From Arthrobacter sp. SLBN-83 (GTDB taxonomy: Bacteria > Actinomycetota > Actinomycetes > Actinomycetales > Micrococcaceae), in contig NZ_VFMX01000001.1 in the NCBI RefSeq assembly GCF_006715285.1, forward strand, positions 3,534,001 to 3,598,000: 64,000 nt of DNA, in the 5' to 3' direction. Made by a program: the position numbers and the translations under genes. The notes under the pieces are model-generated. The model was not told the DNA's origin. It searched no databases and saw only the letters and a program-made list of their open reading frames with translations. The first letter of the stretch is position 1, and each line of letters opens with the position of its first letter. This document shows, piece by piece, positions 36,839 to 39,886 of this stretch.

Positions 36839-37660
36839 ATGGATATCCCTAAGCCGGCACCCCTGGAGGTTGAATCCGCCATGCTCGAGTCCGCCATGGA
36901 CGCCGCGTGGCCGGCCTTGGAACGGCACACTGCCGGTGGCTGGGTCCTCCGGGCAGCCGCCGGCGTAACCCAGCGGGCCAACTCGATCTGGCCGAGGGGT
37001 GCCGCCCGCCACTCGGCTGAAGATCTTCCCGCGCTGCTCCGCCAGGCCCGGACCTGGTACCGCAACCGCCGGTTGCCGGTCATCTTCCAGCTGTTTGACG
37101 GCCCCGCTGCGACGGAACTGCACGGACTTCTTGACGCGGAAGGCTTTACCCGACAGTCCGGGACCCTGGTCATGACCCGCAGCGCCGCCACGCAGGAGCC
37201 CGCCTCTGCGGCCACGCGGGCCACCCCGGCTGTGGAACTCTCACCGGATCCATCGGAGGATTGGCTACAGGTCTGGTGGCAGGTGGACGGCCGCGGTGGA
37301 GAGGACGCCAGGGCCGTCGCCCGGAAGATCCTTGAAGGCTGCCCCTCCGTCTACGCCCTGGTGAGGGACCACGAGGGGCGGCCCGCCGCCGTCGGACGCC
37401 TTGCGGTTCCCGCAGGCAGCAACCAGGGCGGCCTTTACTGCATGGCTACCCTGCCGGAAGCGCGCCGTCGCGGTTTTGCCTCAGCGATCCTCGAGTCGCT
37501 GCTGCAGGCCGGCAACCATCGGGGCGTGACAGGCTTCTGGCTGCTGGTGACCGCAGCGAACCACGGCGCGCAGGAGTTGTACTCCAACGCCGGGTTCCAG
37601 GAAGCCGGCCGCTACCTCTACCGGCAGGAACGCCCCCGCCGGGCACCCACCGGCTGCTGA
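36839..37660 (+). CDS. GNAT-family N-acetyltransferase
   Basis: A 273-residue protein. The C-terminal half has the acetyl-CoA-binding GNAT core: LYCMATLPEARRRGFASAILESLLQ (motif A with RRRGFA) and FWLLVTAANHGAQELYSNAGFQEAGRYLYR (motif B). The N-terminal half is a degenerate GNAT-like or accessory domain (PALERHTAGGWVLRAAAGVTQRANS). The substrate is unknown. AAGGAAGGAGGAG precedes the ATG, a very strong ribosome site. It converges on the acVLRF1 gene with only four bases between stops. Confidence 0.88.
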   Translation: MDIPKPAPLEVESAMLESAMDAAWPALERHTAGGWVLRAAAGVTQRANSIWPRGAARHSAEDLPALLRQARTWYRNRRLPVIFQLFDGPAATELHGLLDAEGFTRQSGTLVMTRSAATQEPASAATRATPAVELSPDPSEDWLQVWWQVDGRGGEDARAVARKILEGCPSVYALVRDHEGRPAAVGRLAVPAGSNQGGLYCMATLPEARRRGFASAILESLLQAGNHRGVTGFWLLVTAANHGAQELYSNAGFQEAGRYLYRQERPRRAPTGC

Positions 37661-37664
37661 ACCG

Positions 37665-38348
37665 TCATGGCCAAGTCCGCGACCCGGCCGGATCCGTTAC
37701 CGTGATCCGCACCGAGCAGGCGTCGGCTGCGGCCTTCTTCAACACGGCTGCCCGGGGTTCGTGCACGTCGAGGTATGCCAGGCGGGGGAGCAGCGCATAG
37801 TTCCGGAGGGCCGGTTCTTCGAGGACCAAGTCAGCCAGCGTCCTGTCGCCGCCCGGGACCAGGTATTCGAAGGCCTGGCCCGCGAACACCATTCCTGCCT
37901 GCTCGGCCACGGCAGCGACCAGGACATCCGCCTGGTTGGAACGCCGGCGGGCGAAGCGCTGCTGGGACTGGCCGCCCGCGGCGGTGCGCGACTGGACGTA
38001 CCGGGTCCCCGCCTTGGCGGCGAGCAGCAGGCCCTCACGTGCCACACCGACGCCGTAACCGCCCCGCCGGACCAGCAACAGTCCCAGCGTGCGGGGCTGG
38101 GAGGCAAGGGCAGCCAGCCGCTCCAAGGGGCCGTCGCCGCGTCCGGGCCGTCCGTCTGCCGGCCACGGCGCCTGCAGGAGGGCTTCGGCGCCGTCGGCCG
38201 CCACAAGGCGGAGGCCGTCGTCGTCATCCTGCAGCCGGTACCCGCGGTGCGAGGCCCCGAACCGTTCAACCCAGCCCGCCAGCCGGGCGCCTGACACGAA
38301 GGCGGTCCGGACGGAGGGTGGACCGCCGGCAGAAGCAGGGGCAGGCAT
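37665..38348 (-). CDS. acVLRF1-family release-factor-like peptidyl-tRNA hydrolase
   Basis: A 227-residue protein of the actinobacterial VLRF1 group, related to the Vms1/ANKZF1 release-factor domain of eukaryotic ribosome quality control. The diagnostic loop TAAGGQSQQRFARRR carries the GGQ-like Gly-Gln expected to reach the peptidyl-tRNA bond, preceded by GGYGVGVAREGLLLAAKAGTR. Family members are predicted to free nascent chains from stalled large subunits; the bacterial role is not worked out. AAAGGA lies six bases before the ATG. It is transcribed divergently from rarA. Confidence 0.8.
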   Translation of the reverse strand: MPAPASAGGPPSVRTAFVSGARLAGWVERFGASHRGYRLQDDDDGLRLVAADGAEALLQAPWPADGRPGRGDGPLERLAALASQPRTLGLLLVRRGGYGVGVAREGLLLAAKAGTRYVQSRTAAGGQSQQRFARRRSNQADVLVAAVAEQAGMVFAGQAFEYLVPGGDRTLADLVLEEPALRNYALLPRLAYLDVHEPRAAVLKKAAADACSVRITVTDPAGSRTWP

Positions 38349-38401: not shown

Positions 38402-39886
38402 GTGGATGATCTCTTCGGCAACGGGCCGGATAATGACGACGAGGACGGTCCCGTCGCCGGGGCAGGCGCCGGTTCCCGGGGCAACAGCGCACGGGGCCAG
38501 GGTTCGCCCCGGAGCCCCCTTGCCGTACGTATGCGGCCGCGCACCCTTGACGAGGTCGTGGGCCAGCAGCACCTGCTCGGCCAGGGTTCACCGCTGCGCC
38601 AGCTGGCAGCCGGGGCAGGCGCTGACGCAGCCGGCCCTGCCGGGCCCAGTTCGCTTATTTTGTGGGGTCCGCCTGGCACCGGCAAGACCACGCTGGCGCA
38701 CGTCATCGCCCGCGGTCCCGGCCGCAAGTTCGTGGAACTGTCCGCCATCACAGCAGGCGTCAAGGATGTCCGCCGGGTGATGGACGACGCCCTGACCGCC
38801 CGGGATCTGTACAAAACCACGACGGTGCTGTTCCTGGACGAGATCCACCGTTTCAACAAAGCCCAGCAGGACGCCCTGTTGCCCGGGGTCGAAAACCGCT
38901 GGGTGGTCCTGGTGGCCGCCACCACGGAAAACCCTTCCTTCTCCGTGGTCTCGCCGCTGCTCTCCCGCTCGTTGCTCCTGACGCTCAAACCCCTGACCGA
39001 CGCTGACATTGAAGGCCTGCTGGTGCGGGCCGTGGAGGATCCGCGGGGGCTGGGCGGCAAGGTCCGGCTCAGCGACGAAGCGCTGGAGCACCTGGTCCGG
39101 CTCTCGGGCGGAGATGCCCGCAGGGCCCTTACGGCTTTGGAGGCCGCGGCGGGCGTCGCTTTCGGTGACGCGGACGACGTCGGGCGTTCCGTGGGGGAGG
39201 AAGGCGCACCGGGTGAGCCGGTCACCGAAGCCCCGGTCACCGGGGAACCGGTCGTTGTGGAGCTGCGGCACACCGAGCGCGCCCTGGACGCAGCTGCCGT
39301 CCGTTACGACCGCGCCGGCGACCAGCACTACGACGTGGCCAGCGCCTTCATCAAGTCCATCAGGGGCTCGGACGTCGATGCTGCCCTGCATTACCTGGCC
39401 CGGATGCTCGAGGCGGGGGAGGACCCCCGGTTCGTTGCCCGCCGCATCGTCATCTCGGCGGCGGAGGACGTGGGCATGGCCGACCCCACTGCGTTGCAGA
39501 CCGCCGTGGCGGCGGCCCAGGCGGTTCAGTTGATCGGCATGCCGGAAGGCCGGATCATCCTGGCCGAAGCCGTGGTCCACCTGGCCACCGCGCCAAAGTC
39601 GAACGCAGCCTACATGGGCATCAACAAAGCGATCGCCGATGTCAGGGCAGGCCTCGGCGTCGGCATTCCCGCCCACCTGCGCGACGCGCACTATCCGGGC
39701 TCCAAGCAGCTGGGCCATGGCGTGGGCTACAAGTACGCCCACGACGCCCCGCACGGCGTGGCAACCCAGCAGTACCCGCCGGATGACCTGGTAGGCCGCG
39801 ACTACTACCAACCCACGGGCAACGGTGCTGAACGGGACATCGCCCAACGGCTGGAGCGCCTGCGGAAGATTGTCCGGGGCAAGTAA
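38402..39886 (+). CDS. rarA: Replication-associated recombination protein A (RarA/MgsA)
   Basis: A 494-residue AAA+ ATPase of the clamp-loader clade. Walker A is [12 protein letters not shown], Walker B is [10 protein letters not shown], sensor 1 is [11 protein letters not shown], and the conserved C-terminal oligomerisation domain ends [18 protein letters not shown]. It acts at stalled replication forks. An insert of about 50 residues between the lid and C-terminal domains ([16 protein letters not shown]) is Pro/Val-rich. There is no Shine-Dalgarno; TAGCCT at 38390-38395 lies 6 bases before the GTG, so a leaderless message is likely. Confidence 0.93.

What the first reader, a model, noticed from the sequence alone, without database searches (positions are those of the whole stretch)
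37665..38348. acVLRF1: a bacterial relative of the Vms1/ANKZF1 ribosome-rescue release factor
The loop GGQSQQRFARRR and surrounding strands match the VLRF1 fold of eukaryotic quality control. It is next to rarA, with rel, efp and rpsD elsewhere in the window. How actinobacteria use it, and whether it works with RqcH or Pth, is little studied.
Basis: partly seen in the sequence, partly recalled or inferred. Interest (0 to 1): 0.5.

Follow-up and report, generated by a model that had tools for sequence, protein, structure and literature searches.

The report
Vms1-like release factor in Pseudarthrobacter
This soil-bacterium gene encodes a small relative of the enzymes that cut a half-made protein off a stuck ribosome; the family is already named but apparently untested, and its relatives show which amino acid probably does the cutting and suggest a link to oxidative stress.

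Summary
A 227-aa ORF lies on the minus strand at 38348..37665 and matches acVLRF1 in Pfam (1.3e-40) and NCBIfam (5.5e-73), a family named in 2019. The AlphaFold model (pLDDT 90) is an eRF1 domain-2 fold (Z 14.3); among the listed matches only Vms1 also covers its N-terminal part.

At least 7-10 Q/W changes are needed on every bootstrap tree. The Gln two residues on (Q129) is kept in 191 of 191 readable loops and is the likely catalytic residue. (2) No RqcH over cut-off in 393 class genomes, 115 of which have acVLRF1. (3) In 60 of 115 genomes acVLRF1 lies after SUF genes and/or before an ABC-F gene, always on the same strand; in one family it precedes superoxide dismutase in 19 of 20 genomes. 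But SUF-ABC-F synteny also occurs without acVLRF1, and the window genome has neither neighbour beside it. Peptidyl-tRNA hydrolysis is inferred, not shown.

The parts
37665..38348 (-). acVLRF1 gene, 227 aa
   Evidence: ORF; PF18859 1.3e-40; NF041024 5.5e-73 over residues 14-218
38103..38315 (-). N-terminal extension, residues 12-82, small beta-rich domain in place of the stop-codon domain
   Evidence: AlphaFold secondary structure; structural alignments to Vms1 start at residue 16-17, those to eRF1 at about 84
37701..38093 (-). eRF1 domain-2-like (RNase H fold) catalytic domain, residues 86-216
   Evidence: PF18859 residues 86-216; human eRF1 Z 14.3, 128 residues, rmsd 2.7
37941..37976 (-). catalytic loop and start of the basic helix, GGQSQQRFARRR, residues 125-136
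   Evidence: sequence; invariant G125 G126 S128 Q129 Q130 R131 F132 A133 R134 R135 R136 in the 36-row alignment
37962..37964 (-). codon of Q129, proposed catalytic glutamine (the Gln of 'SQ')
   Evidence: Gln in 191 of 191 readable loops among 194 non-redundant sequences, counted without presupposing it; in print the motif is GGxSQ (PMC6514570)
37968..37970 (-). codon of Q127, the Gln of 'GGQ', replaced by W, R or S in relatives
   Evidence: non-redundant rows: Q 114, W 73, R 3, S 1, no readable loop 3, of 194
38402..39886 (+). context only: rarA, divergent neighbour
   Evidence: MgsA_C 9.8e-71; on the opposite strand in 65 of 66 Arthrobacter-group loci
36839..37660 (+). context only: GNAT acetyltransferase, convergent, 4 bp apart
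   Evidence: Rv0428c_C 2.4e-24, Acetyltransf_1 1.8e-12; relative on the opposite strand in 46 of 66 Arthrobacter-group loci

Best explanation
acVLRF1 is a stop-codon-independent ribosome-rescue release factor. It keeps only the eRF1 middle domain plus a Vms1-type N-terminal extension. It enters the peptidyl-transferase centre of a stalled ribosome or a free 50S-peptidyl-tRNA particle, led by the basic helix RFARRR, and its GGxSQ loop hydrolyses the P-site peptidyl-tRNA ester. The working glutamine is most likely Q129 (the 'SQ' Gln, comparable to Vms1 Q295 in GGSQ), not Q127 of 'GGQ'. It works without RqcH, as an extra to tmRNA-SmpB. In the window genome ArfB was not found either, so of the rescue hydrolases searched for here it is the only one found there. 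Ancestrally it seems to be tied to stress physiology, as it sits after the SUF operon, before an ABC-F gene, or before superoxide dismutase in many relatives. Shown: family, predicted fold, loop conservation, absence of RqcH in the sample, gene neighbourhoods. Inferred: hydrolysis, the identity of the catalytic residue, the ribosomal substrate, the stress link.
For: Family profiles. AlphaFold pLDDT 90.3, pTM 0.82; eRF1 Z 14.3; Vms1 6r84 Z 9.8 over residues 17-219, 171 aligned. Strict GG-x-S-Q with the following R/F/A/R/R/R invariant in 36 rows; Q129 in 191 of 191 readable loops. Purifying selection in both the Q and W clades, median dN/dS 0.18 and 0.15 over 10 and 9 hand-picked Arthrobacter-group genes. 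RqcH over cut-off in 0 of 393 genomes, acVLRF1 in 115 of the same 393. Own genome: SmpB and tmRNA present; ArfB profile best 8.8e-9, two matches, probably RF1/RF2. SUF upstream in 42 and ABC-F downstream in 48 of 115 genomes, no best hit in another order or orientation. SOD (PF00081, PF02777) downstream in one family, 19 of 20 within 250 nt. In print, Vms1 Q295L is strongly impaired and deleting S294, which makes GGQ, abrogates function (PMC5989216 passages).
Against: I found no activity, ribosome-binding or phenotype data. The loop aligns without a gap to archaeal aRF1 GGQSAQRFAR, where the first Gln lines up with Q127. Two relatives lack the loop in frame (L067, L245), so loss is tolerated, or the gene is decaying there. 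The fold is shared with Balon-type hibernation factors (Z 10.5). The SUF-ABC-F block exists without acVLRF1 in 20 of 27 assessable acVLRF1-negative genomes, so ABC-F need not be a partner. 55 of 115 genomes, the window's included, have neither SUF nor ABC-F within 6.5 kb. ArfB is not complementary: 103 of 115 acVLRF1 genomes also have it.
Confidence: 0.68

Rival explanations
1. Non-catalytic ribosome binder: like Balon or Dom34 it occupies the A site/PTC of idle or stalled ribosomes and protects or splits them without hydrolysis.
For: Same fold as Balon (Z 10.5); a natural W at the canonical Gln in 73 of 194 rows and two natural loop deletions; SUF and SOD neighbourhoods suggest stress.
Against: In print, most baeRF families lack the Gln and vary in loop length, family 10 being an exception (PMC6514570 passages); here the GGxSQ loop has Gln at position 129 in 191 of 191 readable loops. 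The own genome already has a separate Rv2629/Balon-like protein (L002; under the NCBIfam cut-off, over the Pfam baeRF_family2 one).
Confidence: 0.15
2. Q127 of GGQ is catalytic as in aRF1; proteins with W, R or S there are catalytically dead side branches.
For: Gap-free alignment with archaeal aRF1 GGQS.
Against: The Arthrobacter-group W clade has dN/dS 0.15, no weaker constraint than the Q clade (other W clades not measured). At least 7-10 Q/W changes are needed in each of 1000 bootstrap trees of 55 rows, odd for repeated death and rebirth. Position 129 stays Gln in both types.
Confidence: 0.12
3. It acts off the ribosome, as a Pth-like hydrolase of dropped-off peptidyl-tRNA, or as an RNase H-fold nuclease tied to rarA.
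For: Standalone small protein; rarA on the opposite strand in 65 of 66 Arthrobacter-group loci; RuvC-like folds appear at Z about 8.
Against: No RarA was found within 6.5 kb of acVLRF1 outside family f1 or in the 14 named loci outside the Arthrobacter group. The loop and basic helix are those of ribosomal release factors. The RuvC Z of about 8 is near the background that the tool describes, against 14 for eRF1.
Confidence: 0.05

Closest known systems
acVLRF-1 family (PF18859, NF041024; Burroughs and Aravind 2019, PMC6514570)
   Same: Profile matches over both cut-offs, GGxSQ loop, no stop-codon domain, short N-terminal extension
   Different: No difference found; this is a member. Added here: Q/W exchange at x, SUF/ABC-F/SOD neighbourhoods, no RqcH in the class sample
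Vms1/ANKZF1 (eukaryotic RQC release factor; PDB 5whg, 6r84)
   Same: eRF1-like domain plus N-terminal extension (residues 17-219 align); a serine-glutamine pair in the loop (GGSQ in yeast Vms1, GGxSQ here)
   Different: One more residue in the loop; no profile match by sequence; no RqcH/Rqc2 relative in the class sample; too short for the zinc finger and ankyrin repeats
Archaeal aRF1 / eRF1 domain 2 (PDB 4af1, 1dt9)
   Same: Best fold match (Z 14) and best sequence match (4af1, 1.7e-8); collinear GGQS loop
   Different: No stop-codon or C-terminal domain match; TIGR03676 24.4 bits against a cut-off of 234.7
Balon / Rv2629 hibernation factors (baeRF families)
   Same: Fold, Z about 10; profile cross-match
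   Different: A separate 378-aa paralogue in this genome is the baeRF_family2 protein
ArfB
   Same: Proposed role: codon-independent rescue by a small standalone hydrolase
   Different: Unrelated fold (recalled); co-occurs with acVLRF1 rather than replacing it

Membership tests
acVLRF-1 (PF18859/NF041024) | profile scores over curated cut-offs | tested here: met
   139 bits against 27.1; 245.1 against 125
acVLRF-1 (PF18859/NF041024) | GGxSQ catalytic loop | tested here: met
   GGQSQ at residues 125-129
acVLRF-1 (PF18859/NF041024) | no stop-codon or Pelota domain, short N-terminal extension | tested here: met
   227 aa; Pfam finds no domain over its cut-off outside the catalytic region; order of elements in the model
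acVLRF-1 (PF18859/NF041024) | peptidyl-tRNA hydrolase activity (the NCBI product name) | not testable with these tools
   needs a biochemical assay
VLRF-1 clade / Vms1-like | eRF1 domain-2 fold | tested here: met
   predicted model: Z 14.3 to eRF1, 9.8 to Vms1
VLRF-1 clade / Vms1-like | N-terminal extension shared with Vms1 | tested here: met
   6r84, 6r87 and 5whg align from residue 16-17 with 165-173 residues, rmsd 4.6-4.7; eRF1 rows start near 84; moderate Z, by fold only, and the tool warns that this part is barely tested
Eukaryotic-type RQC release factor | acts with an Rqc2/NEMF/RqcH protein | tested here: not met
   PF05833 over cut-off in 0 of 393 class genomes, own genome without a match
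Eukaryotic-type RQC release factor | Cdc48-binding VIM motif | not tested
   not searched for
Canonical aRF1/eRF1 | aRF1 equivalog profile over cut-off | tested here: not met
   TIGR03676 24.4 bits against 234.7
baeRF family 10 | PF18854 over cut-off and the best-scoring family | tested here: inconclusive
   61.8 bits, over its 27.1 cut-off, but PF18859 scores 139 on the same region

The most novel reading that the evidence does not exclude
Actinobacteria run an RqcH-free counterpart of the Vms1 step. acVLRF1 releases peptides from stalled ribosomes under oxidative or iron-sulfur stress (SUF operon, SOD), with the neighbouring ABC-F as an Arb1-like helper. Its chemistry uses the Gln of GGxSQ, with the canonical GGQ glutamine dispensable and repeatedly exchanged with tryptophan in evolution.
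Probability: 0.22. Interest if true: 0.68.

Novelty: new member of a known kind. Interest (0 to 1): 0.42.

Why it matters
No listed title or abstract in my paper searches reports an assay of a bacterial VLRF-1 protein. If acVLRF1 hydrolyses peptidyl-tRNA, it would show a Vms1-type release step in bacteria outside RQC. The natural GGQ/GGW exchange is a ready-made experiment on which glutamine of the eRF1-superfamily loop does the chemistry, and the SUF/SOD neighbourhoods give a concrete condition (oxidative or iron stress) in which to look for a phenotype.

Tried and rejected
RqcH partnership: rejected for this class sample. The 25 weak PF05833 matches all lie at profile positions 161-283 and none passes the cut-off.

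acVLRF1 as a replacement for ArfB: rejected. 103 of 115 acVLRF1 genomes have ArfB against 164 of 278 others, a positive association (ArfB absence taken as best E above 1e-20, 126 genomes, close to the tool's 128 below cut-off). It is not corrected for phylogeny.

ABC-F as a dedicated partner: weakened by my own control. I chose 35 of the 278 acVLRF1-negative genomes by hand; the orthologue is present in 35 of 35 and its midpoint lies 5.6-13.7 kb downstream of that of sufB on the same strand in 20 of the 27 where both are on one contig. What remains in favour: in family f83 ABC-F is near acVLRF1 in 15 of 17 genomes, 14 of them without SUF nearby, and within 250 nt in 14; likewise in the one genome each of f74 and f100.

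Mobile-element origin: no phage record matches, and one record of the plasmid collection does (Nonomuraea, 11.9 Mb, so effectively a chromosome). Chloroflexota members were not sampled.

Genomes matching NF041024 below its cut-off (11, 36) were left out as probable baeRF-type proteins. Rows dropped: the 218 loci hold duplicates of one gene and were reduced to 194; the 153-row tree thinned Arthrobacter-group Q rows from 51 to 13 and left out the 3 rows without a readable loop; the 55-row tree left out R and S rows and rows 66% or more identical to a kept row of the same state.

My gene caller for GC-rich DNA gave spurious ORFs and missed acVLRF1 in many loci, so the neighbourhood counts rest on tblastn with reference proteins, best hit of each per region; the SOD link was first seen with the caller and then checked by tblastn and Pfam. 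Several regions end at a contig end, so the counts are lower bounds.

Full report
Observation. The interval holds a 227-aa ORF on the minus strand, 38348..37665, with ATG start. The plus-strand frame has an internal stop. The loop GGQSQQRFARRR is residues 125-136. Pfam gives acVLRF1 PF18859 at 1.3e-40 (residues 86-216) and, on the same region, baeRF_family10 at 1.2e-16. NCBIfam gives NF041024, 'acVLRF1 family peptidyl-tRNA hydrolase', at 5.5e-73 over residues 14-218. The gene would be named automatically today. The genome is a single 4,415,912-bp contig. The closest relatives listed are in Pseudarthrobacter and Arthrobacter, 89% and 88% identity for the best two.

What is in print. 'acVLRF1' occurs in no paper of the library and 'VLRF-1' in one: Burroughs and Aravind 2019, PMC6514570, of which I read passages and the outline. 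They define acVLRF-1 (actinobacteria/chloroflexi), give the motif GGxSQ, note the loss of the stop-codon domain and a short N-terminal extension, and say that bacterial VLRF-1 members stand alone without other RQC parts. The 12 of 16 passages shown for 'ABC', 'operon', 'gene neighborhood', 'Fe-S' and 'SUF' contain no SUF or ABC-F neighbourhood for acVLRF-1; figures and supplements were not available to me. No listed title or abstract reports an assay of a bacterial member (one search lists 20 of 74 papers). Of the papers I did not open PMC11317155, PMC8786322 and PMC12453390.

Structure. AlphaFold on 36 window and relative sequences gives pLDDT 90.3, pTM 0.82; residues 121-130 average 60 and are coil up to 127, and a long helix starts at 128. 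Foldseek's best matches are eRF1. VIA-align gives human eRF1 Z 14.3 over residues 84-212. Vms1 scores lower (6r84 Z 9.8, 5whg Z 8.5) but aligns from residue 16-17 to 219 with 165-171 residues. So among the listed matches only Vms1 rows cover the N-terminal part; the tool warns that this part is barely tested. By sequence the profile finds archaeal aRF1 (4af1, 1.7e-8) and no Vms1.

Which glutamine. In 36 aligned sequences G125, G126, S128, Q129, Q130 and R131-R136 are invariant and Q127 is not. Counted without presupposing it, position 129 is Gln in 215 of 215 readable loops of 218 loci, 191 of 191 in the 194 non-redundant sequences. Position 130 varies (Q, R, H, K). In the 194, x of GGxSQ is Q 114, W 73, R 3, S 1, and 3 lack a readable loop: two in-frame loop losses (L067, L245) and one assembly gap (L068). 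The codons are CAG/CAA against TGG, and the Arg rows use CGT, CGA and CGC. On a 153-row tree built without that column the fewest Q/W changes are 9; with all states 12, against a mean of 54 and minimum of 42 in 200 label shuffles. Deep branches of that tree are weakly supported. On a careful 55-row tree the count is 8, and 7-10 in all 1000 bootstrap trees. dN/dS medians are 0.15 (W, 36 pairs) and 0.18 (Q, 45 pairs) in hand-picked Arthrobacter-group genes, so those W proteins are not decaying. In Vms1 the essential Q295 sits in GGSQ, and converting it to GGQ by deleting the Ser abrogates function (PMC5989216 passages). I infer that Q129 is the catalytic Gln and that x is a tolerant, mostly two-state position.

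RqcH, ArfB and trans-translation. In one sample of 393 class genomes, NF041024 is over cut-off in 115, NFACT_N/RqcH in 0 and ArfB in 265. The RqcH controls ring in 11 of 14 genomes, 10 over cut-off, Bacillus subtilis among them, so the profile works. 12 of 115 acVLRF1 genomes lack ArfB, including the window's own, against 114 of 278 without acVLRF1. The own genome has SmpB and tmRNA. In a wider phylum sample 6 of 296 are over cut-off.

Neighbourhoods. For all 115 genomes (114 fetched regions, plus the window), tblastn with reference proteins, midpoints within 6.5 kb, finds SUF genes upstream on the same strand in 42 (8 families), the ABC-F downstream on the same strand in 48 (9 families), both in 30, either in 60 (10 of 23 families), and no best hit in another order or orientation. 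Over the whole fetched stretches, the SufT to acVLRF1 gap is between -60 and 250 nt in 18 of 43 loci with a SufT hit (two more overlap by 67 nt), acVLRF1 to ABC-F is 250 nt or less in 16 of 52, and in family f85 a superoxide dismutase follows within 250 nt in 19 of 20 (start codons chosen by rule). The reference SufC, SufS and SufU pass NCBIfam cut-offs; the 'SufT' has the PF01883 Fe-S assembly domain over its cut-off but no NCBIfam model over its own; the SOD has both Fe/Mn-SOD domains. Independently, 11 of the 14 named loci outside the Arthrobacter group have SufT on the same strand. The ABC-F has ABC_tran twice plus ABC_tran_Xtn and matches NCBIfam 'ribosomal protection-like ABC-F', the own-genome orthologue over the cut-off (393 against 380), the query from L156 just under it (374). 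Control: the SUF-ABC-F block also exists without acVLRF1 (20 of 27 assessable negatives). In the window genome the ABC-F orthologue (73% identity) lies about 22 kb from sufB, and both are about 175-200 kb from acVLRF1; the neighbours there are rarA and a GNAT gene. So the stress link is a family-level inference and is not visible at this locus. PMC8012679 (passages) says that eukaryotic tailing is terminated by Vms1/ANKZF1, perhaps helped by the ABCF protein Arb1, and that termination in bacterial RQC is unknown; the PDB title of 6r84 shows Arb1 with Vms1 on 60S.

Verdict. An already named gene family. The added value is a sharp prediction (Q129, not Q127), the lack of RqcH in the class sample, and conserved neighbourhoods that point to oxidative or iron-sulfur stress.

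Noticed in passing
L002:1072-2208 (own genome, contig position about 1302 kb): A second eRF1-superfamily protein in the same genome: 378 aa, baeRF_family2 1.9e-43 and Rv2629 hibernation-factor family 2.6e-57 but below its cut-off (194.6 against 320); probably a Balon-type protein.
   Followed up: partly
L067 and L245: acVLRF1 genes of two Arthrobacter-group genomes that keep the frame but lack the catalytic loop: a real loss of catalysis, decay, or an assembly error.
   Followed up: no
20 loci of family f85, for example L162:6718-7389: Fe/Mn superoxide dismutase downstream of acVLRF1 on the same strand, within 250 nt in 19 of 20 genomes of that family.
   Followed up: partly
35 hand-picked acVLRF1-negative genomes: An ABC-F gene lies 5.6-13.7 kb downstream of sufB on the same strand in 20 of 27 assessable genomes: an old actinobacterial synteny whose reason is unclear.
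   Followed up: partly
   Followed up: no
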